Below are positions 1,995 through 26,719 of a stretch of 34,361 bases of DNA, in pieces (positions within the stretch are counted from its first letter, which is position 1; each line of letters opens with the position of its first letter). The stretch is from Sulfurovum sp. (GTDB taxonomy: Bacteria; Campylobacterota; Campylobacteria; Campylobacterales; Sulfurovaceae), in contig DYMX01000014.1 in assembly GCA_020721345.1 (NCBI GenBank), forward strand, positions 1-34,361, given 5' to 3'. A model generated the notes under the pieces. It worked only from the letters and a program-made list of their open reading frames with translations. It searched no databases and was not told the origin of the DNA. The translations under genes were made by a program, and so were the position numbers.

Positions 1995-3096
1995 TCATTG
2001 CTTCATCTTCCTAACCCAATTCCAAAAAAGCCTCTCATTATCCGCTCTTTTGTCGATAGGCTTTTGCTCAATCATCAGATTTGCCAACTCCTTTGCCAGA
2101 TATGGCGCAAGCACAAATCCTCTCGCGCCCAAACCATTTAAAATATATAGATTTTCATGATAGATAGTAGGATATTTTCTACCGTCAAATATATAAGGAT
2201 ACTCAAACATCTTATTAGCGTCTATCACTTTGCCGACAACTGGCGAAAAGTCCCTACTCCCACTCCCTCATACCACAATACGTTTTAATGAGCTTAAAAT
2301 CGCTTGTATCTATCATATTTGATGCTTTTTCTAAAAGCTCATAATCTTTACTATCATCACACGGCTTTTTGTCTATAACTTCAAGCTCATGAGTAGCGCC
2401 AAGTTTGATAACTCCACCCATATTTGCAGAAATTGATAGTGATTCATGCATACTGACATCGAGTTTTAGCTGTGAGCTAAAGTCGCCACGATTTCCCCAA
2501 GTACCTTTTATACCCATATATCTCATATCAAATAGATCATTTTCAAATCCTGTTGAGAGAACGATATTTTTTGCTTTTTTGTCTTTAACTATCCAAACAT
2601 CATCTTTTTTTGTTATATCTTTGACATCAAAGCGTAAAAAATCTATGTCTTTTACTAATTCTGTGCAAATCTCTTTTGCATCACATGTGCCGCCGTCAAA
2701 AAACAGAGTTGAGTTATATCTGACATCGAAGCCATATTTGCTTATCTGACTAGGTGTCAGCTCTGCATATTTTGCATTGTGAAATTTGGAATATTTTGAA
2801 GTTTTAGAAGCATTAAGCTCATCTTTGGGTACTCGTATCACTCCTGTTTGATGATAGTATTGTGGGAAATTCTTTTTATAAAAATCTATCGTAAAATTAA
2901 ATGCATCGTCTGTTAGATCTTTTAGAGGCGAACTCACACCTATCTTAGGAGAGAGAAAAGCTCCGGCAGCACCGCTCCCGCCGCTTGCAATACCTTCTTT
3001 ATCGACTAGTAGAACTTTTTGATTTTTTTGTTTTAAAAAATAAGCAACACTACAACCTGCGATCCCTGCACCTATGACTACAGTATCGTAAAGCAT
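1995..3096 (-). pseudogene. mnmC: FAD-dependent oxidoreductase of the MnmC C-terminal type, frameshifted
   Basis: The N-terminal frame (3096 down to 2254) has a Rossmann FAD site, G9-A-G-I-A-G14, and DAO-family similarity. It ends prematurely after YCGMREWE. The rest continues in another frame as SRDFSPVVGKV then IDANKMF, followed by LYILNGLGARG, the usual MnmC(o) end. A single extra base in the ggg/gtggg stretch at about 2252-2270 (for example the CCC at 2265-2267) explains the break: removing one gives CGMRSGSRDFSPVVG. The MnmC oxidoreductase domain acts on wobble uridine of tRNA, turning the carboxymethylaminomethyl group into aminomethyl. The N-terminal methyltransferase domain of E. coli MnmC is absent. 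The start overlaps the glyS stop by one base (TAATG). Real inactivation and sequencing error cannot be separated here. Confidence 0.7.
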
Positions 3097-5099
3097 TAGA
3101 TAGTTATCTCTTTTATATCGGCAATGTTTTTAAAACTATTATAAATTTGTCCGATAGTTGCTAAGCGGTTATTTTTCAAGGATACATCATCGCTATTTAC
3201 CATAACTTTATCAAAATAATTATCAAGTAACTCTTTTAGAGAAAAAAGTGCTTTTAAATTATCTTCATAACTCTCATGTTTTTTTGAAATTATATTTTTG
3301 AACTGTGTATAAAGATCTTTTTCTTCATCCAACTCAAATTTATCCTCATCAACATTAAAATCGCTTACATCTTTTGATATATTTGCTACTCTTTTAAATG
3401 TTATGGATATATCTTTAAAGTCATTTCCACTAACAATGCTATTTAGCGCTTCGCATTTTTTAAATATTTTGACTATATCACTCTCATTTGAACTTAAAAC
3501 TGCATTTATAATCGAAGGATTCATATCTATACTTTTTGAAATTCTCTCCAACATAAATGCTTTTAGTTGTTTTAAATCAAACTCTTTATATTCATTTGCA
3601 AGCCCTTGTATCATCTCGTCAATATCAAAAGGCAAGTCAAACTCTAAAACGATTCTAACTATCCCGTTAACCGCTCTTCTGAGCGCAAATGGATCTTTAG
3701 AGCCTGTCGGGATCTTACCGACGCTAAATAAACCTATAAGAGTGTCAAGTTTTATCGCCATTGCTACTATTGCGCTAAATATAGAGCTTGGAAGTTCGCT
3801 TCCCTCGCCTGTTGGCATATATTGCTCTTTTATTGCTAAGCGCACGTCGCTATCAAGATTTAAAGCTTTGGCGTAATAATAGCCCATAAGCCCCTGAAGC
3901 TCTGTAAACTCGTAAACCATCTCACTTGTAAGGTCAGCTTTAGCAAGGCGCACGGCTTGGCTTATCTTTTTACCATCAATGCCGAATTTGCTTGCCAAAT
4001 AAAGTGCAATTTTTTCTTCTCTGTCAATTTTATCGATAACTGTACCCAATCCATCCATAAACTGCACAAGCTCAAGCCCATCAATTTTAAGTCCACGCTT
4101 TAGGTCATTTTGATAAAAGAACATAGCGTCGCTAAGTCTAGGTTTAAGCACTCTCTCATTACCTGCAACTACTTTACTATAATCATCCGTTAGAGCATTA
4201 CTTACTACCACAAAGTGATTTGATAATTTATCTCCATTGAACACAGGAAAATATCTTTGATTTTCTTTCATAGATGTTATGATAACTTCAGGTGGTAAAG
4301 TCAAAAATGCTTCCTCAAATTTACCAAGCAACGCTTTTGGATTTTCCGTAATTGCCACAACCTCATCAAGCAGATCTTCATCTATCTCTATGGTTATATT
4401 GTTCTCTTTTTGAAGCTCTGCAAACTCTCCAAGAATCAACCCTCTTCTATCATCAGGCTTTAGCAATACGCTACCCTCTCTTAAGATACTTTCAAAATCA
4501 CTAATTTTTACAACTTCTTGTTTTTCAAAACTTTTCATTCTATTAACATAAGTAAAATTACTGCTCTTAACACCAAAAAGTTCAGCATCCACAACACCAT
4601 CATCAAGTCTAACTTGAAGCCATCTGATCGGTCTTATAAACTCATCGCTCCTATCTCCCCATCTCATCATTTTTCCAAACGACATAGACTCTATCCACTC
4701 TTTTATCATATCTTCCAATAATGAAGCAGTATCAACACCTTCTTTTGTACTACTATAATAAAGCGCTTCTTTGCCTCTATCCACAGTAGTAGAAAGCGCG
4801 CTGAACTCAACGCCGCACTTGTTGGCAAAACTAATTCCTGCCGGTGTCGGTATGCCGTTTTTTGTTGCTATTGCCACAGGGGGTCCAAAAAGTTCCATGT
4901 TCGAATCGGCTTGTTTAAGAGAAATCTCTTTGTGTATCAGAACTAATCGTCTAGGAGTATAAAAGAAGTCAAAATCACTTGCAAGCAGATACTTCTCTAA
5001 AATATTACTCCAAGATGATTTTATATTGTCTATGATTTTTAAAAGTGGGATTGCCGGAAGTTCTTCGACTCCAACCTCTACCAATAATTGTGCGCGCAT
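3096..5099 (-). CDS. glyS: Glycine--tRNA ligase beta subunit
   Basis: At 667 residues this has the normal length for the beta chain of bacterial alpha2-beta2 glycyl-tRNA synthetase, which charges tRNA-Gly in the cytoplasm. The N-terminus LLVEVGVEELP is the family hallmark. TGEGSELPSSIFSAIVAMAIKLD and GSKDPFALRR mark the middle HD-like region, and an alpha-helical DALR-type anticodon-binding region ends the protein. The alpha subunit gene (glyQ) is not in the window. The ATG at 5099 lies 61 bases after the small membrane ORF, with a weak AGGA upstream. The 1-base overlap with the mnmC-type gene suggests coupled translation. Confidence 0.97.
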   Translation of the reverse strand: MRAQLLVEVGVEELPAIPLLKIIDNIKSSWSNILEKYLLASDFDFFYTPRRLVLIHKEISLKQADSNMELFGPPVAIATKNGIPTPAGISFANKCGVEFSALSTTVDRGKEALYYSSTKEGVDTASLLEDMIKEWIESMSFGKMMRWGDRSDEFIRPIRWLQVRLDDGVVDAELFGVKSSNFTYVNRMKSFEKQEVVKISDFESILREGSVLLKPDDRRGLILGEFAELQKENNITIEIDEDLLDEVVAITENPKALLGKFEEAFLTLPPEVIITSMKENQRYFPVFNGDKLSNHFVVVSNALTDDYSKVVAGNERVLKPRLSDAMFFYQNDLKRGLKIDGLELVQFMDGLGTVIDKIDREEKIALYLASKFGIDGKKISQAVRLAKADLTSEMVYEFTELQGLMGYYYAKALNLDSDVRLAIKEQYMPTGEGSELPSSIFSAIVAMAIKLDTLIGLFSVGKIPTGSKDPFALRRAVNGIVRIVLEFDLPFDIDEMIQGLANEYKEFDLKQLKAFMLERISKSIDMNPSIINAVLSSNESDIVKIFKKCEALNSIVSGNDFKDISITFKRVANISKDVSDFNVDEDKFELDEEKDLYTQFKNIISKKHESYEDNLKALFSLKELLDNYFDKVMVNSDDVSLKNNRLATIGQIYNSFKNIADIKEITI

Positions 5100-5160
5100 A
5101 AGATTAAATTTCCTATAAAATAAAGTTAATTATTTTACCCAATATTTCGTAAAGAGGCGG

Positions 5161-5304
5161 TTAAGAGTTATTCTCTTCTTCTTTCATATCTTTTCTCTTC
5201 CAATCCTCATCAAACTTTCCTTTGTAATAACTTCTTATATTAAAAATCGTAATAGCTATGAACATAATCAATGCTATGTAGTAAATTATCTCTTTTGTCT
5301 CCAT
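5161..5304 (-). CDS. Small single-pass membrane protein, 47 residues, unknown function
   Basis: An ORF opens with ATG at 5304 and ends with TAA at 5161. It encodes METKEIIYYIALIMFIAITI, then a charged tail rich in Lys, Asp and Glu (GKFDEDWKRKD, KEEENNS). Residues about 6-22 form one hydrophobic segment, with the charged tail probably cytoplasmic. The start codon overlaps the trmL stop by one base (TAATG), the same coupling seen at leuD/leuB and glyS/mnmC, which supports it as real. I do not recognise a family. It is too short for homology by eye, and conservation in related genomes would decide. Confidence 0.6.
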   Translation of the reverse strand: METKEIIYYIALIMFIAITIFNIRSYYKGKFDEDWKRKDMKEEENNS

Positions 5305-5777
5305 TATAAATTATCCTTTATTACTTCATAATTTTGTCTTATAGCTTCGTAAGTTACAATTCCGACACTAAGTGCGAGATTTAAACTTCTTCCATTATCA
5401 CTGCTCATGGGAATAGTTATACAATTTTTAGCATTTTCATCTAAAATATAACTAGGTATTCCCTTTGTTTCAGAGCCAAAAACTAAAAAATCGCCTGCTT
5501 TATAACTGCTATTAAAATATAAATTTTTTGTTTTTGTCGTAGCAAAATGAAATCTATCATCTATTGGGTTGTGGAACAAAAAATCATCTAGACTTTCCCA
5601 AACTTTCAGATCAAGCTTTTCCCAATAGTCAAGTCCTGCCCTTTTAACTTCTTTATCATCGATAGAAAAACCGAGCGGCTTAACCAAATGCAAAGTTGCG
5701 CCTAAATTTACGCAAAGTCTTCCAATTGTGCCGGTATTTGGCGGAATTTGTGGATTGATTAGAACTATGTTGAACAT
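5304..5777 (-). CDS. trmL: tRNA (cytidine(34)-2'-O)-methyltransferase, SPOUT family
   Basis: A 157-residue SPOUT-fold enzyme that methylates the 2'-OH of the wobble nucleotide of tRNA-Leu isoacceptors using SAM. It begins NIVLINPQIPPNTGTIGRLC, where the invariant Asn-Thr-Gly-x-x-x-Arg binds substrate. The knot motifs VFGSETKGIP and ITIPMSSDNGRSLNLALSVG are intact. Length equals the family norm. It follows the purU stop immediately (TAAATG) and overlaps the small membrane ORF by one base. Confidence 0.95.
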   Translation of the reverse strand: MFNIVLINPQIPPNTGTIGRLCVNLGATLHLVKPLGFSIDDKEVKRAGLDYWEKLDLKVWESLDDFLFHNPIDDRFHFATTKTKNLYFNSSYKAGDFLVFGSETKGIPSYILDENAKNCITIPMSSDNGRSLNLALSVGIVTYEAIRQNYEVIKDNL

Positions 5778-6614
5778 TTAAAAAATTATTGTCTTATTGC
5801 CGTTTACAAATACTCTGTCCGTTAGCACTAGATCAAGCGCCCTGGAAAGTACGATCTTTTCCACATCTCTTCCTGCACGCTGCATATCAGTCCAGTCAAA
5901 TCTGTGATTTACCGGTATTACATCTTGGGAGATAATCGGTCCTTCATCGAGGTCGTTTGTTACAAAGTGTGCTGTTGCGCCAATGATCTTAACGCCTCTA
6001 TGGAAAGCTTGTTTATATGGATTTGCTCCAATAAAAGCCGGCAAAAATGAATGATGGATATTGATGATCTTACCTGTAAAATGCGTTACAAAATTTGGTG
6101 TTAGAATCCTCATATACTTTGCAAGTACAACATAATCAAATTCAAATTCATTTAAAAGATCTATAATGACCCCTTCATGCTCTTCTCTGCTCATCTCGTC
6201 TGCGCTTATATGAAAAAACGGTATATCAAACCTTCTGACAAGCTCTTCGAGGGTATTGTGATTTGCCACAACAGCAACTATCTCGGCATCAAGTTCATCA
6301 TCTTGATGACGTATAAGTATATCGCCTAAAGCATGAGATTCTTTTGTTGCCATAAGAACTATTTTTTTTCTTTTTGGCATAATTACTTTTATATTTGCAT
6401 CATTCGGCAGCGCAACCAAAAGTTCGCTTTCAAGTATCTCTGGGTCAAATTTACCTGAAATTACGGTTCTCATAAAAAACCTATTTGTTTCAACATCAAC
6501 AAACTCTTGATTGTCTTCTATATTTAGATCTTTATCAAAAAAAAGTTTTGAAATTTTATAAACCAAGCCCTTGTCATCATTACAGTCAATTAAAATTCTT
6601 GCTTTTAAACTCAT
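5778..6614 (-). CDS. purU: Formyltetrahydrofolate deformylase
   Basis: Hydrolyses 10-formyl-THF to formate and THF, balancing one-carbon pools and supplying formate. The start is set at the ATG at 6614, giving 278 residues, the family norm; a longer frame to 6677 would begin inside leuB. An N-terminal ACT domain (about 1-80, starting MSLKARILIDCNDDKGLVYK) precedes a formyltransferase fold with INIHHSFLPAFIGANPY, IGATAHFV and LDEGPIISQDV. The Asn, His and Asp catalytic set is present. The gene begins 14 bases after leuB and ends flush with trmL. Confidence 0.95.
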   Translation of the reverse strand: MSLKARILIDCNDDKGLVYKISKLFFDKDLNIEDNQEFVDVETNRFFMRTVISGKFDPEILESELLVALPNDANIKVIMPKRKKIVLMATKESHALGDILIRHQDDELDAEIVAVVANHNTLEELVRRFDIPFFHISADEMSREEHEGVIIDLLNEFEFDYVVLAKYMRILTPNFVTHFTGKIINIHHSFLPAFIGANPYKQAFHRGVKIIGATAHFVTNDLDEGPIISQDVIPVNHRFDWTDMQRAGRDVEKIVLSRALDLVLTDRVFVNGNKTIIF

Positions 6615-6628
6615 TTTTATCCGTTTGC

Positions 6629-7696
6629 TTATTTTATATAAGAGACTATAACATCTCCCATTTGTGAACAGTTGCATATCGTTTTAGCATCATATGCGCC
6701 GATATCGCCTGTTCTATATCCATCTTTAAGAGCTTGTTTTATAGCATGATCTATTTTACTAGATGCTTCCATCTCGCCTAATGCATATTTTAACATCATA
6801 GCAGCGCTTGAAATTGTTGCCAACGGATTTGCTATTCCCTGCCCTGCAATATCAGGAGCTGAGCCGTGAATAGGCTCATACAGCCCTACACCTTCGCCTG
6901 TGCTTGCGCTTGGAAGAAGTCCGATGGATCCGCTTAGCATACTAGCGGCATCTGAGAGAATATCGCCAAAAATATTTCCGGTTAGTATTACGTCAAACTG
7001 TTTAGGATTTCTGATAAGCTGCATAGCAGCATTATCAACATACATATGAGAGAGTTCAACTTCAGGATACTCTTTTGCTACTTCTATAACCACATCTCTC
7101 CAAAATTGGCTGACCTCAAGAACATTTGCCTTGTCAACAGAACAGACCCTTTTGTCTCTTTTCATGGCTATCTCAAATGCTACTTTAGCTATTCTTGTCA
7201 CTTCTGCCCTAGTGTATATCATGGTATTATAAGAATGATCTTTTAGATATTCTCTTGGCTGTCCAAAATAAATGCCGCCTATAAGCTCACGAACCACCAT
7301 GATATCAACACCCTTTACTACTTCCGGTTTTAAAGTAGATGCATTTACCAACTCATCGTAAACAACAGCCGGACGAAGATTTGCAAAAGTTCCCATATGA
7401 GCTCTTAGCGCCAAAAGTCCGCTTTCGGGTCTTAGACGTCTCTCTAGGTTATCCCATTTAGGACCGCCGATTGCTCCAAAAAGTACAGCATCACAACTAT
7501 CAACGCCTTTTTTTGTTTCGTCTGGGAAAGGAACGCCTGTAGCGTCTATCGCCGCGCCGCCAAGCAACATCTCTTTATATTCAAAGTTGATATCGCAAAC
7601 AGAGCCGACTTTATCAAGTACCTTCAAAGCTTCCGTTACGATCTCCGGACCTATCCCATCCCCTCTTATAATGCCTATTTTATATGTTTTTGCCAT
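6629..7696 (-). CDS. leuB: 3-isopropylmalate dehydrogenase
   Basis: A 355-residue NAD-dependent decarboxylating dehydrogenase that turns 3-isopropylmalate into 2-oxoisocaproate in leucine biosynthesis. Seen motifs: GDGIGPE (12-18), the substrate arginine region [12 protein letters not shown], and the metal/NAD segment [24 protein letters not shown] followed by [19 protein letters not shown]. The start overlaps the leuD stop by one base (TAATG), so the two enzymes are translationally coupled. leuA and leuC are not in this window. Confidence 0.97.
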
Positions 7697-8190
7697 TATT
7701 TACTTTTCCCTTCAAGCTCTTTTTTTGCAAACTCTATAAGTCCGCCGGCATCAACCAACTGTTGCATAAATGGAGGGATCGGAACAAATTTGTATGTTTT
7801 CGCTTGGGTTATGTTTATAATTTCGCCCTTGTCCATATCTATCTTTATAGTATCGCCTTCATTTATCTCATCAGCTTCTTTGAGCTCAAATATCGGTAAC
7901 CCCATATTGAAAGCATTTCTATAAAATATTCTGGCAAATGTCGGCGCTATTACTGCATTGATCCCTGCTGCTTTTATTGCTATTGGCGCATGCTCACGGC
8001 TGCTTCCGCATCCAAAATTTTCGCCTGCAACAATAATATCGCCTTTGTTCATTTTTGAAACAAAATTCGGATCTGCATCTTCCATGACATGCTTTGCAAG
8101 CTCTTGTGCGTCACTCGTGTTTAGGTATCTTGCGGCTATTATCAAATCGGTATCGATATTCTCTCCAAATTTCCAAACTTTACCTTGCAA
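7696..8190 (-). CDS. leuD: 3-isopropylmalate dehydratase small subunit
   Basis: A 164-residue small (swivel) subunit that pairs with the [4Fe-4S] LeuC subunit to isomerise 2- to 3-isopropylmalate. It has the short LeuD/HacB form common in Campylobacterota. [15 protein letters not shown] and [13 protein letters not shown] (57-69) are the substrate-binding hallmarks. The start is a TTG at 8190: it is preceded by AGGA with a 6-base gap, matches the usual MQGKVWKFG beginning, and lies about 30 bases downstream of a clear -10 box at 8221-8226. First gene of the leuD-leuB-purU-trmL-glyS train. Confidence 0.95.
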
Positions 8191-8220
8191 TGATTGTCCT
8201 TTTGTCCGTTATTTTGGGCG

Positions 8221-8226
8221 ATTATA
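8221..8226 (-). promoter_or_regulatory. Promoter -10 box for the leuD operon
   Basis: Minus-strand TATAAT preceded by TTTTGGA, about 30 bases upstream of the leuD TTG start. No good -35 is visible, which is usual for sigma-70 promoters of Campylobacterota. It lies in the 190-base divergent gap shared with rpoD. Confidence 0.7.
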
Positions 8227-8291
8227 TCCAAAAGTAGCATAAAAACCAAAGAAGAAAGCGCAAATTTGTTCTATGATTAAAAAAATTTCGG

Positions 8292-8297
8292 TATAAT
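8292..8297 (+). promoter_or_regulatory. Promoter -10 box for rpoD
   Basis: TATAAT preceded by a T/A-rich stretch (aaaaaaatttcgg), 83 bases upstream of the rpoD ATG. A second, weaker cataat box at 8304-8309 could be an alternative. Seen by consensus match only; the start site is inferred. Confidence 0.6.
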
Positions 8298-8380
8298 ATA
8301 TGACATAATATAAAGATTACAAAAACAGAAAAAGTTTACAGAATATAAATAAAAAGATATAAAACAAAGGATAGTCAAAA

Positions 8381-10261
8381 ATGGCAGAAAAAGACAGCTT
8401 GAAGACAGTAGAAGAGATGTTGTATCAGAAAAACAATAATGATTTTATAACCTATGAAAATATAGCGAGGGAATTCAACAAACCCATCACAAGCACTCAA
8501 GCAAAAAAAATATATAAAATAACACAAGATAAAAATATAAATGTCATAAGCGCTTCTGAGGCTGCTAGAGATCTAACCATTAGAAGACAGATAGAAAATA
8601 GTGAAATTATTCGTAAAAAAAATAGTGACGGCAACCTAGAAGAAGAGTTTGACTTTGCAAAAGAAAAAGAGCTTCTAGAGTGGAGCAGAAGTGATAGTCC
8701 TGTGAGGATGTATCTAAGAGAAATGGGCAAAATTCCTCTTCTTACAAAAGACGAAGAAGTTGACCTGAGTATACAGATAAAAGAAGGAGAAGACATCATC
8801 ATAGATGCTATCTGTTCAGTTCCTTATCTTGTTGACTATATCATCAGATACCGCGAACCGCTCCTTAACCGCGAAAGAAGAGTAAAAGAGCTATTTAAAA
8901 GCTTTGAAGATGCCGATGATAGTGAAGAAGAAGTTGAAGAAGTTGAAACGGAATCCGAAGAATCAGAAGAAAACACAGAAGCAAAAGCAAAACCTGCAAA
9001 AGAAGACAAAAGAGTTGGACAAGTACTTGAGAGCTTTAAAGCTTTAGAAAAAGCAAAAAAAGAGTGGATGAAGTCTAGAGGCGAACTTATAAAATTCATA
9101 AACGAACACGGAGATGTTGACTCGGAAGATGTGTTCACTGAAAGACTCAAAGTGGCTTACAAAAAAGAGCTGCTTAAACATGCTCTTTTAGACCTTGGGC
9201 CGACAAGCAAACTAATAAATGAGCTTGTAAAAGCCATGGAAACAGCGCTAAAAAGCGATGACAGCTTTGATAAAGAACTTAAACGTCTTGAATACAAGCT
9301 TCCGCTTTTTAATGAGATACTTATCAAAAACCATGAGAACATACTAAAAAACATTATTAATATGTCAAAAGAAGAGATTGCTATTGCCGTTCCTGAAGCG
9401 ACAATGGTAAGCACATACGTAGAGATCAAAAAGCTTTTTGAAACCAAAGAGGCAAGCAAAGGCGGATTTGACCTAAGCCCTGAAAAACTTGAAGAGATAT
9501 TAAATCAAATCAGACTAGGTAAAGCCAAAAGCGAAAAAGCGAAAACGAGAATGGCAAAAAGCAACCTTAGACTTGTTGTCTCTATAGCAAAAAGATACAC
9601 AAACCGCGGACTGCCGTTTTTGGATCTTATCCAAGAAGGAAATATAGGTCTTATGAAGGCGGTTGATAAGTTCGAATACGAAAAAGGGTATAAATTCTCA
9701 ACTTATGCGACATGGTGGATAAGACAAGCTATAAGCCGCGCAATCGCAGATCAAGCGAGAACCATCAGGATACCTATCCATATGATAGAAACTATCAATC
9801 GAATAAATAAAATTACCAGAAAGCACCTGCAAGAAAACGGCATAGAGCCGGATATAGACACGATAGCAAGAGAGATCGGACTCTCAGCTGATAAAGTAAG
9901 AAATGTTATCAAAATAACAAAAGAACCCGTAAGTTTAGAATCTCCTGTTGGTGACGAAGATGATGGAAGATTTGGTGACTTCATAGAAGACAAAAGCTCA
10001 TTAAGCCCTACAGAAGAGGTTCTTAGAGATGATTTAAACAATCAAATAGATGAAGTCTTAGAACAGCTGAACGAAAGAGAAAGAGCCGTTATAAGAATGA
10101 GGTTCGGACTACTTGATGATGAAAGTGACAGAACGCTTGAAGAGATAGGAAAAGAGCTAAGCGTAACAAGAGAAAGAGTTAGACAAATAGAATCGTCAGC
10201 GATCAAAAAACTAAAACATCCAAAAGTCGGCAGAAAGCTAAAAAATTATATAGAAGATTGA
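8381..10261 (+). CDS. rpoD: RNA polymerase primary sigma factor (sigma-70)
   Basis: A 626-residue housekeeping sigma factor. In order: an N-terminal region 1.1-like segment; region 1.2 ([21 protein letters not shown], about 107-127); a long non-conserved insert with an acidic Glu/Asp-rich stretch (about 175-205); region 2 ([40 protein letters not shown], with the aromatic melting residues intact); region 3 ([16 protein letters not shown]); and region 4 ([19 protein letters not shown], then [20 protein letters not shown]). The ATG at 8381 is preceded by aaagga. It is transcribed away from leuD. The stop is two bases before the GTG of the CinA-like pseudogene, which probably shared its transcript. 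Confidence 0.98.
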
Positions 10262-10263
10262 TA

Positions 10264-11007
10264 GTGGATTTTTATGCTCTTATCATAGGAACGGAGATTT
10301 TAAATAAGAGAAGAGAAGATAAGCATTTTGAATTTCTCTCATCCGAGCTTGCAAAATACGGTCATACGCTAAAAGCATCTTTGGTCATTATATGATGATC
10401 CAAACTTGATCGTCTCGACGCTTAACTGGCTAAATTGTCTACCAGATGGTGTTATTTTTTGCTTTGGCGGGATCGGCTCAACTCCTGATGACCACACAAG
10501 ACAAGCTGCCGCAACTGCTCTTAGAGACGGTGTACTTTATATCAATGAAGAAGCAAAAAAAAAATAATTGATACACTAGGAGTTAGAGCATATCCATATG
10601 CCATAAATATGGCGAATTTACCCAAAGATTGCAAATTGCTAGAAAATCATTTTAACAAAATGCCCGCATTCAGCCTAGATGAGAAATTCTTTTTTATGCC
10701 CGGTTTTCCGGAGATAAGCCACCAAATGGTGTTAGATATTCTTCCAAGATTGAATATCAAAAAAAGAAAAGTTTATAGACACACCTTAACTGCTTTGTGC
10801 AAAGAGAGTGAGTTGATACCTATCATGGAGACAATGCCAAAAAATGTTGAAATGTCTTCTCTGCCAAAGCTTTATAGCGATGGGTCAAGAGTTACGCTCT
10901 CAGTTGCATCGACTGACAAATCAGTAGCTTTAGAAAATTTCAAAAAATTTACAGATGAACTTCAAAAAAAAGAGATAATATACGCATTAAATGATGAAAA
11001 AGAGTAA
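10264..11007 (+). pseudogene. CinA/MoCF-type molybdopterin-binding domain protein, two frameshifts
   Basis: Translation in three pieces rebuilds one protein of about 245 residues. From the GTG at 10264: DFYALIIGTEILNKRREDKH, ending at TGA near 10392. From about 10393 in another frame: DDPNLIVSTLNWL, then FCFGGIGSTPDDHTRQAAA, to a stop after ten A's (10555-10564). From there in a third frame: IDTLGVRAYPYAINMANLPK to the stop at 11007. GTE near the start and GGIGSTPDD are the MoCF_biosynth fold signatures seen in MogA/MoeA and CinA. Family role: handling of cofactor-like nucleotides; the exact substrate is unknown. Both breaks look like one-base changes, one of them in an A10 tract. Only the third piece (10609-11007) has an ATG. 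Confidence 0.75.
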
Positions 11008-23375: not shown

Positions 23376-24147
23376 TATTTATATCATCTCTATTCCACCT
23401 GGCTGGATCAAAAAAAGTGTCATCATGTATATGCTCAAAAGATGCTTTTAACATTTTAAAAAGATTTTTTTGTTTTGACTCCATCTCTTTTAACCACTCT
23501 TTTGTTGATTCTCTGGCATGTGGCATTTTTACATTTTTTAGCATTGCCGGGCATGCTTCATCACCGATTGTCTGAATGTTGTTTTCATCGGCAAATGCTC
23601 TAAGCTGTGATTCTCTTGCTTGGATTAGCGGGCGAATAAGATGAACTCCTCTGTTTGTTTTATAGATAGGTGCTAAACTTCTCATGGAACCGTTATAAAA
23701 CATATTCATAAAAAAACTCTCCACAGCATCATCAAAATGATGCCCCAAAGCAATTTTTGTAAATTCTCCATTTTCGGCAAATGTATAAAGCGCACCTCTT
23801 CTCATGCGAGAAAAATAACTGCAAAATGAGCTATTTTCTCTAATGGTATCATTTGAGATTTCAAAAATATTTGTATCATATACCGTATGTTTTATTCCAT
23901 GTTCCAAACAATGATCATGAAGATATTCATATGATTCTCCAGGCATTCCATAGTTAACTGTGCAAGCTTCAAACTCAAACTTGAAAGGCGCATGTCTTTG
24001 CATATGTTTTAGTATATGGACGAGCGCCAAAGAGTCCTTGCCGCCACTTAACCCAACGAGTACCTTATCACCTTCATTTATTAGCTTAAATGCAGCATTT
24101 GTCTTACCTGCTACCCTGAGGAGTTTTTTGCTTACACTTATCACCAC
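23356..24147 (-). CDS. ttcA: TtcA-like PP-loop ATPase (tRNA 2-thiocytidine synthesis family)
   Basis: A 263-residue N-type ATP pyrophosphatase. The PP-loop VGLSGGKDSLAL (SGGKDS at 34-39), SRMRRGALYTFA, LGHHFDDAVESFFMN and IGDEACPAM match TtcA, which thiolates C32 of certain tRNAs using an Fe-S cluster. In E. coli TtcA the cluster is held by CxxC plus a later Cys. Here C109 is present (SFCSYFSRM) but position 112 is Phe, and C199 is kept. The exact reaction is thus less certain, and the name may cover a related Campylobacterota subfamily. It starts with GTG at 24147. Its AAAGG ribosome-binding site lies within the last codons of the RhuM-type gene, 3 bases upstream. Confidence 0.8.
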   Translation of the reverse strand: MVISVSKKLLRVAGKTNAAFKLINEGDKVLVGLSGGKDSLALVHILKHMQRHAPFKFEFEACTVNYGMPGESYEYLHDHCLEHGIKHTVYDTNIFEISNDTIRENSSFCSYFSRMRRGALYTFAENGEFTKIALGHHFDDAVESFFMNMFYNGSMRSLAPIYKTNRGVHLIRPLIQARESQLRAFADENNIQTIGDEACPAMLKNVKMPHARESTKEWLKEMESKQKNLFKMLKASFEHIHDDTFFDPARWNRDDINKMSSEQ

Positions 24148-24148
24148 T

Positions 24149-24160
24149 TTTTACCTTTGT
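24149..24160. repeat. 12-base direct repeat, copy at the RhuM/ttcA border
   Basis: ttttacctttgt here is repeated exactly at 25020-25031. The two copies bracket the RhuM-PLD-type gene. On the minus strand the word contains AAAGG, which serves as the ttcA ribosome-binding site, so chance similarity of Shine-Dalgarno regions explains only part of the match. Confidence 0.65.
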
Positions 24161-24981
24161 ATCATCTTTAATATCTCATTACTATCTATATCCATCTTGC
24201 TAAAAGCAAAAACTTTTTTACCCAAATCTTTCAAACTTGCTCCTATGTGATATATCTCTTTATCATCAATTATTATAAATCTATCGTGATAATTTTTAAT
24301 CTCTTTTATTTCTAAGTTATTATACTGTTTATTGTATTTTTCTATATCTAATTGCGATTGTTTTGATATGCTTTGGGTATATATAGTTATTTTAACATTT
24401 TGATTTTTTGAAAATAGTATCAATACAGACTCATCTATGTAGTTATCAACTACAATAATTGATTTTTTAGCACTTTTTATCAAACCTGCTATAAACAAAT
24501 AAGCATCAAATATCTGCCCATCAAAAAATATTCCTTGTTTTATCTCCAATGAATTATCTTTTATTTGAGATTTTATACTTGCAACATCATTTTCCAGTAG
24601 CATTAATCTTTGTTCTGTTATTTTATGACTATTTATAGCATAACTATTTTGGATATAGTTTTTTAGCACACTTGTTGCCCACTGTCTAAACTTTACACCT
24701 TTTACAGACTTAACTCTATAGCCAACTGAGATAATTACATCTAGATTATAATGTTCTGTAATATATGTTTTCCCATCTGAAGCAGTTGTCGCAAAATTTG
24801 CGACAACTGCTTTTTTTACAAGTTCGTTATCTTTAAATACATTACTAATATGTTTACCAATAGTTTTTATGTCCCTGTCAAAAAGATATGACAGTTGATT
24901 TCTGTTTAACCAAACAGTATCCTCTTCAACTGATACCTTTAGCTCCAACTCCCCATCGTTATAGACTATAATGTTTTGCAT
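24151..24981 (-). CDS. RhuM-type DNA-binding protein with phospholipase-D-like C-terminus
   Basis: A 276-residue accessory protein of unknown role. The N-terminal part (about 1-125) matches the RhuM/ORF6N group: VWLNRNQLSYLFDRDIKTIG helix-turn-helix-like segment, HISNVFKDNEL, ATTASDGKTYITEHYNLDVI, GYRVKSVKGVKFRQWATSVL. After a coiled-coil-like linker, the C-terminal part (about 150-270) resembles PLD-fold proteins: SAKKSIIVVDNYIDESVL, then H232-x-R234-xxxx-D239 with HIGASLKDLGKK. This is a one-copy HKD-like motif with Arg replacing Lys, so nuclease activity is possible but unproven. The gene is AT-rich, lies between housekeeping genes, contains a perfect palindrome (24781-24811) and is bracketed by a 12-base direct repeat. 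RhuM homologues are common on islands. Confidence 0.8.
   Translation of the reverse strand: MQNIIVYNDGELELKVSVEEDTVWLNRNQLSYLFDRDIKTIGKHISNVFKDNELVKKAVVANFATTASDGKTYITEHYNLDVIISVGYRVKSVKGVKFRQWATSVLKNYIQNSYAINSHKITEQRLMLLENDVASIKSQIKDNSLEIKQGIFFDGQIFDAYLFIAGLIKSAKKSIIVVDNYIDESVLILFSKNQNVKITIYTQSISKQSQLDIEKYNKQYNNLEIKEIKNYHDRFIIIDDKEIYHIGASLKDLGKKVFAFSKMDIDSNEILKMIQR
24781..24811. repeat. Perfect 15-base-arm palindrome inside the RhuM-type gene
   Basis: Arms agcagttgtcgcaaa (24781-24795) and tttgcgacaactgct (24797-24811) are exact reverse complements around one central base. In the gene it encodes residues 58-67 (AVVANFATTA). On the plus strand it is followed by a run of seven T's (24811-24817), the form of an intrinsic terminator pointing antisense to the gene. 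Operator and terminator functions are both only inferred. Confidence 0.9.
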
Positions 24982-25019
24982 AGGTTAATCTTTAATCGTA
25001 TAAGCAAAATCATTGTCGC

Positions 25020-25031
25020 TTTTACCTTTGT
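25020..25031. repeat. 12-base direct repeat, copy at the hrgA-like 3' end
   Basis: ttttacctttgt, an exact partner of 24149-24160, overlapping the last base of the hrgA-like stop codon. With its partner it could be a target-site duplication from insertion of the 0.87-kb RhuM-type gene unit. Confidence 0.65.
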
Positions 25032-26014
25032 CACATTATCTCTTCTGTATCTTCAATTGGTATACTCTTTTCTTTACAATAATTTTCAACTTCTGTATCG
25101 TTATCAAAATAATCATCACAAAATACGTCTAATTCTTTTTCAGCACCTGAAGCATATTTTTCACTTGCAGTCATTAGTTTTTCTGTTTGCTCAATAAATA
25201 TTTCAAATTCTTTGTTTATTTTACAAAGTTTATCAATTGTCTTAAAGTCTAAATCTCTATAAGCTGCTGGAAATAGCACTTTACTCTGATAAGGGTTTGC
25301 ATCAAGTTTAATTATCCCGATTCCAAAAGATTGATTTAGTCTTCCCATCTCTTCGTTTAAACTATCGCTAAACTCAAATGCGACTAAATACCCATAATTT
25401 GCCCAACTTGAATTAGAAACAGCTTGAAAAAATGCTTTTTTAAGTTCACTATCACTATTTATTTCTCTTTTAAGTTCGTACGAACTTAATTTGAAAGTGT
25501 CAACACGATTAATTGATTTGAGAAAATTTTGACTTGCTTTCGTTTGTAGTTTCAAGAACTTAATTCCAATCATATCAGGATGTGTCCAAATTTGATTACT
25601 ATCTTTTCCATTTGATTGTTCGTGAAAAATTGTTTTTGAGTAAGTATCTGTATTTTTTAAATAGCTACTCAAAAGCTTATGTAAATCTCTTTCCTCATAA
25701 GTCTTCAATTTATGTATTTTATTTGGCTTTTCAATTTGAGATTCCTTGTCTCCACTCAAAATTTCAATTCCAATATTTTGTTCATTTTTTGTCAAATAGT
25801 AAGAATAAGTTCCTCCATCTTGTTTTATTCGTTTTACTCTTGTATCACCTTTGCGAATAAAGTCACCAAGTAATGCAGAAATCGTTGATGAAGGAGTTTT
25901 TCCAATTTTAAAATCATAATAATCTTGCTTAACAATATAATTATAAACATCCATATAGTTAGTCAAACCATTTATCTCATCAAGACTTTTTAATATTGCT
26001 TCTTTTATTGTCAT
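25031..26014 (-). CDS. hrgA: HrgA-like protein: HARE-type winged helix plus putative PD-(D/E)XK nuclease
   Basis: A 327-residue accessory protein resembling HrgA of Helicobacter/Campylobacter restriction loci. Residues 1-75 (MTIKEAILKSLDEING, YNYIVKQDYYDFKIGKTPSST, IKQDGGTYSYYL) fit a HARE/HB1-type winged helix, predicted in the literature to read DNA state. Residues about 105-255 contain WTHPDMIG (P146-D147), SYELKRE (E180-x-K182) and FFQAVSNSSW (Q197), in the order expected of a PD-(D/E)XK nuclease core; this is my inference by motif. The acidic C-terminus is about 290-327. The ATG at 26014 has aaaggaa upstream and lies 15 bases after mtnN. One sampled 60-base line is about 27% GC, against about 45% in mtnN, so it is probably acquired. 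No methyltransferase gene is nearby. Confidence 0.7.
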   Translation of the reverse strand: MTIKEAILKSLDEINGLTNYMDVYNYIVKQDYYDFKIGKTPSSTISALLGDFIRKGDTRVKRIKQDGGTYSYYLTKNEQNIGIEILSGDKESQIEKPNKIHKLKTYEERDLHKLLSSYLKNTDTYSKTIFHEQSNGKDSNQIWTHPDMIGIKFLKLQTKASQNFLKSINRVDTFKLSSYELKREINSDSELKKAFFQAVSNSSWANYGYLVAFEFSDSLNEEMGRLNQSFGIGIIKLDANPYQSKVLFPAAYRDLDFKTIDKLCKINKEFEIFIEQTEKLMTASEKYASGAEKELDVFCDDYFDNDTEVENYCKEKSIPIEDTEEIM

Positions 26015-26029
26015 TTTATTGTTCCTTTT

Positions 26030-26719
26030 TTACACCCTCTCAACCATCTCAAGGATAAAATCAGCACTTACTTTTGCGCTGCTAGCTAGAAATGTATCAA
26101 AATCCACATCTGCGCTTCCATCGGCACTGTCACTTATTGCGCGAAGAATAAAAAATGGAATATTCAAGGCATTACATACAACGGCAACACTTGCCCCTTC
26201 CATTTCCAAGGCATCCGCTTTAAAAGTTTTTGCTACCCACTCTTTTTTTTCACCACATGCCACAAACTGATCCCCAGTAGAAATAACCCCTTCTTTTAAA
26301 GTTATGCCTTTGCTGATTGCAACTTCTTTTGCTATGGCTCTAAGTTTTACATCTGTTGGTATGCATACTTCGCCTTCCGGCACAAATCCATAAGGGTGAC
26401 CAAAAGCAGTAATATCCAGATCATGCTGACAAAGTCCGTCAGCGATTATCAAATCCCCGATCTTAAGATCACTGCTTATAGCTCCGGCAACACCGCTGAA
26501 AAGAACCATTTCGCATCTGAATTTTTCTATCAAAAGAATCGATGTCAGAGCTGAGAAGACTTTGCCTATTTTAGAGTATGCCACTACAACATCCCTTCCT
26601 TTGTATGAGGCCTCATAAAATGTATTATTTGCATAATGCGTCTCTTTAATATTGTCCATATGGGACAATAAAGGCTCTATCTCTTCCCTCATGGCCCCCA
26701 TTATTGCGATTTTACCCAT
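26030..26719 (-). CDS. mtnN: 5'-methylthioadenosine/S-adenosylhomocysteine nucleosidase
   Basis: A 229-residue enzyme cleaving adenine from MTA and SAH. In Campylobacterota it also acts on 6-amino-6-deoxyfutalosine in the futalosine route to menaquinone. It begins IAIMGAMREEIEPLL. The known catalytic residues fall at the same numbers as in E. coli: E12, E174 (LEMEGAS, with M173) and D197 (AISDSADG). The ATG overlaps the fabD stop by one base (TAATG). Confidence 0.96.
   Translation of the reverse strand: MGKIAIMGAMREEIEPLLSHMDNIKETHYANNTFYEASYKGRDVVVAYSKIGKVFSALTSILLIEKFRCEMVLFSGVAGAISSDLKIGDLIIADGLCQHDLDITAFGHPYGFVPEGEVCIPTDVKLRAIAKEVAISKGITLKEGVISTGDQFVACGEKKEWVAKTFKADALEMEGASVAVVCNALNIPFFILRAISDSADGSADVDFDTFLASSAKVSADFILEMVERV

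What the first reader, a model, noticed from the sequence alone, without database searches (positions are those of the whole stretch)
25031..26014. HrgA-like protein carries a plausible PD-(D/E)XK core
P146-D147, E180-x-K182 and a following Q197 are in nuclease order and spacing after a HARE-type winged helix. Together this suggests a solitary modification-sensing restriction enzyme (type IV-like) and not an uncharacterised regulator.
Basis: inference. Interest (0 to 1): 0.5.

Follow-up and report, generated by a model that had tools for sequence, protein, structure and literature searches.

The report
HrgA-family HARE-domain nuclease gene
This gene, acquired from other bacteria, encodes a protein whose front part resembles a DNA-modification reader and whose back part carries a fully conserved DNA-cutting site; it is probably a one-protein defence enzyme, and its family ('HrgA', named in Helicobacter pylori) has no nuclease model in any of the four protein-family libraries searched.

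Summary
The gene lies on the minus strand (26014→25031, 327 aa), and P146-D147, E180-L-K182 and Q197 are where stated. The motif alone proves nothing, since 19% of shuffled copies contain it. Conservation does: across 149 homologs, the only invariant D/E/K/R/H/Q residues out of 114 are E108, D147, E180, K182 and Q197, a PD-(D/E)XK site. AlphaFold2 gives the alpha-beta-beta-beta-alpha-beta core (pTM 0.83). Foldseek's best PDB match is 3dnx, followed by weak matches to AspBHI, NucS/EndoMS, FokI, MspJI and HindIII. The N-terminus is a diverged HARE-HTH. The protein belongs to the HrgA family; the H. pylori member replaces the restriction gene hpyIIIR. With a rhuM-type gene it forms a low-GC insert between mtnN and ttcA, absent there in genus relatives, and it nests among Bacteroidota sequences. 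Some homologs sit between hsdS and hsdR of type I systems. One has its HARE domain replaced by the N-terminal domain of candidate defence family PDC-S02. 'Nuclease' is well supported. 'Restriction/defence' is likely. 'Modification-dependent (type IV-like)' is the best guess but untested. HARE-HTH plus REase fusions are already predicted modification sensors, so this is a new member of a known kind.

The parts
25031..26014 (-). hrgA-family gene, 327 aa (ATG at 26014; AGGA ribosome-site-like sequence at 26023-26026)
   Evidence: homologs annotated 'HrgA protein' on plasmids
25769..26014 (-). N-terminal HARE-HTH (winged helix), residues 1-82
   Evidence: All 20 clade N-termini match PF05066, best 2.7e-8, window 0.026; hhalign to HARE-positive homologs E 5.4e-7; model H3-14 H20-30 H41-54 E60-64 E70-74
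25166..25708 (-). PD-(D/E)XK nuclease domain, residues 103-283
   Evidence: AF2 domain model pLDDT 85, pTM 0.83; Foldseek PDB 3dnx E 2.5e-4 then weak PD-(D/E)XK matches
25691..25693 (-). E108, invariant acidic residue of the first core helix
   Evidence: 149/149
25574..25579 (-). P146-D147, motif II
   Evidence: 149/149; start of strand 148-153
25469..25477 (-). E180-L181-K182, motif III
   Evidence: E180 and K182 149/149; inside strand 174-185
25379..25426 (-). Q197 and family signature QAVSNSSWANYGYLVA (residues 197-212)
   Evidence: Q197 147/147; helix 188-201 and strand 207-215
24151..24981 (-). Neighbouring RhuM-N-terminal gene with an HxR...D (phospholipase-D-like) C-terminal motif; PADLOC candidate defence family PDC-S05
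   Evidence: PF13310 1.4e-21; PDC-S05 4.3e-105; a paralog in the same genome lies directly upstream of hsdM; the PLD-like reading of the C-terminus is by eye
24148..26029 (.). Inserted two-gene segment (GC 27-28%) between mtnN and ttcA (41% and 36%)
   Evidence: mtnN and ttcA directly adjacent in G003, G004, G005; about 200-250 bp apart in G006, G007; a different 359-367 aa gene there in G002, G008, G010

Best explanation
The protein is a single-chain DNA endonuclease of the HrgA family: a HARE-HTH DNA-reading domain joined by a short flexible linker to a PD-(D/E)XK nuclease domain. Most likely it acts as a restriction (defence) enzyme without a dedicated methylase partner. The HARE domain would recognise a feature of incoming DNA, probably a modified base, and the nuclease domain (metal bound by D147 and E180 with help from E108, K182 in catalysis, Q197 supporting the site) would cut it. 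Shown by computation: domain architecture, invariant catalytic set, predicted fold, purifying selection, horizontal transfer and recurrent association with restriction genes. Inferred: DNA cleavage, defence role, modification dependence. Separate estimates: active nuclease 0.9, defence role 0.75, modification-dependent 0.5.
For: Invariant E108/P146/D147/E180/K182/Q197 in 149 homologs. AF2 models with the canonical core. Foldseek: 3dnx E 2.5e-4, then weak matches to AspBHI and MspJI (modification-dependent), EndoMS/NucS, FokI, HindIII, Ecl18kI; MmcB-like, VRR-NUC and restriction-type viral proteins. HARE-HTH. The same nuclease core in L099 carries the N-terminal domain of PDC-S02 instead of HARE, inside a type I operon. 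Homologs lie between hsdS and hsdR on a plasmid and near hsdR/S/M in 20 of 100 representative loci. The H. pylori homolog replaces the restriction gene hpyIIIR (PMC6563999, PMC4687069). Foreign insert, nested in Bacteroidota. dN/dS about 0.04-0.06 against the nearest homologs, with dS near saturation. No PF02384, PF01555, PF00145 or PF02086 methylase on the window's contig. HARE-HTH-REase fusions already proposed to discriminate modifications (PMC10853773).
Against: No Pfam, NCBIfam or PADLOC profile places the catalytic core with any nuclease family. Except for 3dnx, PDB fold matches have E > 0.05. The window's own HARE score is below the curated cut-off. No experimental data on any HrgA protein's activity were found. 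The genome contains several DNA methylases, so the enzyme must ignore or be protected from their marks. Many members sit beside restriction-modification genes, which also fits an accessory role.
Confidence: 0.55

Rival explanations
1. HrgA is a conventional restriction nuclease, or an accessory subunit, that works with a methylase or type I complex encoded nearby or elsewhere in the genome: it cuts unmodified sites, or extends the host system's specificity.
For: On a Proteus plasmid HrgA is encoded between hsdS and hsdR, and on a Vibrio plasmid directly upstream of hsdR; 12 of 22 clade C loci are near type I genes; the H. pylori gene is upstream of hpyIIIM; the host genome has a complete type I operon and other methylases.
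Against: 61 of 68 window-clade loci have no type I gene within five genes and immediate neighbours are highly varied; no methylase of four tested families on the window's contig; clade members pass between phyla without a fixed partner.
Confidence: 0.22
2. HrgA is a DNA-repair or recombination nuclease (MmcB- or NucS-like) that acts on damaged or structured DNA and was carried along in mobile clusters.
For: Best fold matches are 3dnx (MmcB-like by my own knowledge) and viral MmcB-like proteins, then EndoMS/NucS.
Against: Patchy distribution (1 of 10 sampled genus relatives; 92 of 298 phylum genomes), horizontal transfer, plasmid and provirus locations and association with restriction genes fit defence better than housekeeping repair.
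Confidence: 0.12
3. A transcriptional regulator with an inert nuclease-like domain, as the automatic 'HTH domain-containing protein' label suggests.
For: Annotated so on two plasmids; the N-terminus is a winged helix.
Against: All catalytic residues are invariant in 149 homologs, which is not expected for an inert domain; L099 keeps the nuclease core and lacks the HARE domain.
Confidence: 0.05

Closest known systems
HrgA family (H. pylori hrgA, which replaces hpyIIIR; C. jejuni cj1602 homolog)
   Same: Homology over the nuclease core and, in the nearer members, the HARE domain; same invariant residues; plasmid homologs annotated 'HrgA protein' at about 30-37% identity
   Different: H. pylori hrgA lies beside the methylase hpyIIIM (PMC6563999); the window gene has no methylase neighbour and belongs to a Bacteroidota-centred clade
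HARE-HTH plus REase fusions predicted in Dnd and BREX neighbourhoods (Aravind & Iyer 2012; PMC10853773; PMC12839542)
   Same: A HARE-HTH fused to a PD-(D/E)XK domain, proposed to discriminate modified DNA
   Different: PMC10853773 and PMC12839542 do not mention HrgA; whether their REase domain is this subfamily could not be checked, and the 2012 paper is not held
Modification-dependent PD-(D/E)XK enzymes AspBHI and MspJI
   Same: Reader domain plus PD-(D/E)XK nuclease in one chain; among the first PD-(D/E)XK fold matches
   Different: Their reader domain is SRA-like (own knowledge); fold E-values only 0.07-0.7; not found by sequence searches
MmcB-like proteins (3dnx) and NucS/EndoMS
   Same: Same predicted fold class; 3dnx is the best solved match, E 2.5e-4
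   Different: 12-17% identity in the fold alignments, different genomic context
PADLOC PDC-S02 candidate defence family
   Same: Its N-terminal domain is fused to the HrgA nuclease core in L099
   Different: The window protein has HARE-HTH instead and does not match PDC-S02

Membership tests
PD-(D/E)XK nuclease superfamily | Conserved PD...(D/E)xK catalytic residues | tested here: met
   E108, P146, D147, E180, K182 149/149 and Q197 147/147
PD-(D/E)XK nuclease superfamily | alpha-beta-beta-beta-alpha-beta core with the residues on strands 2 and 3 | tested here: met
   Secondary structure of two AF2 models and Foldseek match to 3dnx E 2.5e-4; residue distances not measured
PD-(D/E)XK nuclease superfamily | Match to a curated nuclease profile (usual, not obligatory) | tested here: not met
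   No Pfam, NCBIfam or PADLOC nuclease model matches the core; membership rests on fold and residues only
PD-(D/E)XK nuclease superfamily | DNA cleavage | not testable with these tools
   Needs biochemistry
HrgA family | Sequence homology to proteins annotated HrgA | tested here: met
   tblastn to plasmid genes annotated 'HrgA protein' in Helicobacter, Vibrio, Proteus, Shewanella and Alteromonas, E 3e-18 to 3e-21
HARE-HTH proteins | PF05066 match above the curated cut-off | tested here: inconclusive
   Window 15.4 bits against 25.9; close homologs up to E 2.7e-8; hhalign to HARE-positive homologs 5.4e-7
Type IV (modification-dependent) restriction enzymes | Reader domain fused to a nuclease domain | tested here: met
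   HARE plus PD-(D/E)XK; that HARE reads modifications is a published proposal, not shown
Type IV (modification-dependent) restriction enzymes | No cognate methylase | tested here: inconclusive
   No PF02384/PF01555/PF00145/PF02086 hit on contig C37, which is the whole window; other contigs do carry methylases, and many homologs are near type I genes
Type IV (modification-dependent) restriction enzymes | Cuts modified and not unmodified DNA | not testable with these tools
   Needs cleavage assays; therefore called type IV-like, not type IV
Mrr family | Mrr_cat (PF04471) domain | tested here: not met
   No Mrr_cat match in the protein nor anywhere in the genome

The most novel reading that the evidence does not exclude
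HrgA is a widespread, so far uncatalogued family of modification-dependent restriction enzymes (HARE reader plus its own PD-(D/E)XK subfamily). It is found in about a third of sampled Campylobacterota genomes and many Bacteroidota, and it can swap its reader domain. This would explain why hrgA stands in for the restriction gene hpyIIIR in H. pylori, and would make HARE-HTH testable as a base-modification sensor.
Probability: 0.42. Interest if true: 0.55.

Novelty: new member of a known kind. Interest (0 to 1): 0.4.

Why it matters
hrgA has been a named gene of unknown function since 2002, with a reported gastric-cancer association. Automatic annotation calls homologs 'HrgA protein' or 'HTH domain-containing protein', and no model for the catalytic core was found in the libraries searched. 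Five invariant residues turn it into a directly testable nuclease. A HARE-HTH attached to a small nuclease would give a simple biochemical assay for what HARE domains read, a question that also concerns ASXL1-type proteins in animals (own knowledge).

Tried and rejected
Whole-protein Foldseek was dominated by winged helices and gave no match below E 0.001, so the nuclease domain was folded alone. Profile searches of PDB sequences found nothing convincing. Weak hits to Pfam Methyltrans_Mon_1st and RlmN_N and to a BstA-like PHROG were set aside as chance or low-complexity matches. No homolog in the INPHARED phages. Inert regulator rejected because of the invariant catalytic set. The 17-nt repeat around rhuM was considered as an insertion scar and left open. 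Ando 2003 and Aravind & Iyer 2012 are not in the library. A paper search for MmcB as a PD-(D/E)XK family gave nothing useful.

Full report
What is there. The coordinates hold one ORF on the minus strand, 26014 to 25031, 327 aa, ATG start with an AGGA sequence about 8 bases upstream. P146-D147, E180-L181-K182 and Q197 are at the stated positions. The gene order, in the direction of transcription, is fabD - mtnN - hrgA - rhuM-like - ttcA - rluD - trmB. Gene names other than hrgA and rhuM are my own reading of the translations.

Is the motif more than chance? By itself no: PD-x(10,45)-[DE]xK occurs in 18.7% of shuffled copies of this protein and in 4 of 25 other window ORFs. Conservation decides it. 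In 149 of them, including sequences down to about 25% identity, the only invariant D/E/K/R/H/Q residues out of 114 are E108, D147, E180, K182 and Q197. The scan patterns contained PD..G and QAVSNSSW, so D147 and Q197 are partly favoured by retrieval; E108, E180 and K182 are not.

Fold. AlphaFold2 on the full protein (pLDDT 85, pTM 0.66) and on residues 103-283 alone (pLDDT 85, pTM 0.83) gives helix 108-121, strands 124-128, 148-153 and 174-185, helix 188-201 and strand 207-215: the PD-(D/E)XK core, with D147 at the start of strand 2, E180/K182 in strand 3 and Q197 in the next helix. Ten-residue blocks holding D147, E180/K182 and Q197 have mean pLDDT 86, 92 and 94 in the domain model. Foldseek against the PDB puts 3dnx first (E 2.5e-4), then AspBHI, EndoMS/NucS, FokI, Cap4, MspJI, HindIII and Ecl18kI with E 0.07-0.7, among unrelated chaperonin and ClpP chains of similar E. 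Against viral models the best named matches are MmcB-like proteins, nucleases and restriction endonucleases. The tools give no coordinates, so residue distances were not measured.

N-terminus. PF05066 (HARE-HTH) matches 33 of 74 family members and all 20 N-termini of the window's clade, best 2.7e-8, the window itself 0.026. A profile comparison with the HARE-positive distant clade gives E 5.4e-7. HARE is therefore supported by homology, though the single sequence is under the cut-off.

Family. Homologs on plasmids are annotated 'HrgA protein' or 'HTH domain-containing protein'. No Pfam, NCBIfam or PADLOC model covers the catalytic core. The family is present in 92 of 298 sampled Campylobacterota genomes, with several broken copies in one genus. 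In H. pylori hrgA replaces hpyIIIR next to hpyIIIM (PMC6563999 and PMC4687069); in Acinetobacter baumannii it stands alone (PMC6563999).

Neighbourhoods. On a Proteus plasmid HrgA lies between hsdS and hsdR, and on a Vibrio plasmid directly upstream of hsdR. Of 100 representative loci with at least four neighbours, 20 have hsdR, hsdS or hsdM within five genes: 7 of 68 in the window's clade, 1 of 10 in the distant HARE clade, 12 of 22 in the third clade. Immediate neighbours in the window's clade are highly varied, with a scattering of methylases, MADS, DRT and Fic genes and no fixed partner (no background control was run). In L099 the same nuclease core is fused to the N-terminal domain of PDC-S02 instead of HARE (PADLOC E 5.6e-69 over residues 1-163), inside an HsdM-HsdS-...-HsdR operon.

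History. In genus relatives mtnN and ttcA are directly adjacent (G003, G004, G005), a little apart (G006, G007), or separated by a different gene (G002, G008, G010). hrgA and rhuM have 28% and 27% GC against 41% for mtnN and 36% for ttcA. The window protein is 86% identical to a Cecembia rubra protein but 73% to the only other same-genus copy found and 55-64% to full-length same-family copies. In a maximum-likelihood tree it nests inside Bacteroidota sequences, away from most same-family sequences (quick method, SH-aLRT only). dN/dS against the nearest homologs is about 0.04-0.06, with dS near saturation. The gene is thus horizontally acquired and kept under purifying selection.

The neighbour. 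The rhuM-like gene matches PF13310 and PADLOC PDC-S05. Two paralogs exist in the genome; one is directly upstream of the genome's own hsdM-hsdS-hsdR operon. Both genes of the insert therefore belong to kinds of genes that travel with restriction systems.

Mechanism. Most likely HrgA is a one-protein restriction enzyme: HARE reads the DNA, the PD-(D/E)XK domain cuts it. That HARE-HTH fused to REase discriminates modified DNA is a published proposal (PMC10853773; similar fusions in PMC12839542), and another paper cites an analysis in which HARE domains more likely sense cytosine modifications (PMC11037411). The host has several DNA methylase genes of the N6/N4, C5 and D12 families on other contigs, so the enzyme must tolerate their marks. 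In H. pylori it coexists with hpyIIIM, which, if that methylase is active, argues against GATC adenine methylation as its target there (inference).

Verdict. Observation confirmed; nuclease interpretation strongly supported; restriction role likely; modification dependence plausible but untested. New member of a known kind.

Noticed in passing
24149-24165 and 25020-25036: A 17-nt imperfect direct repeat (TTTTACCTTTGTATCAT / TTTTACCTTTGTCACAT, 88%) brackets the rhuM-like gene; possible insertion scar or duplicated ribosome-binding region.
   Followed up: no
24780-24812: A perfect inverted repeat (16-nt arms, 1-nt loop) lies inside the rhuM-like coding sequence.
   Followed up: no
24147-26030: The mtnN/ttcA junction is a variable site in the genus: empty, or occupied by a 359-367 aa gene of unknown function, or by hrgA plus rhuM.
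   Followed up: partly
L272 (G000:C42:12000-24000), 3030-10999: The host genome has a complete type I operon ordered RhuM - HsdM - HsdS - 271-aa KilA-N-like protein (by eye) - HsdR.
   Followed up: partly
L099 6062-9149: Type I operon carrying, between hsdS and hsdR, a 433-aa protein resembling ApeA, the PDC-S02/HrgA fusion nuclease and a 150-aa EVE-like protein (names by eye): a dense defence cluster.
   Followed up: partly
L036 1452-11873: Type I locus with two oppositely oriented hsdS copies and a tyrosine recombinase, with hrgA between the recombinase and hsdR: a likely phase-variable system.
   Followed up: no
L009 1180-2073: HrgA copy with an in-frame internal deletion covering Q197; L032 and L084 hold truncated reading frames and several copies in genus g44 are broken, so the family decays often.
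   Followed up: no
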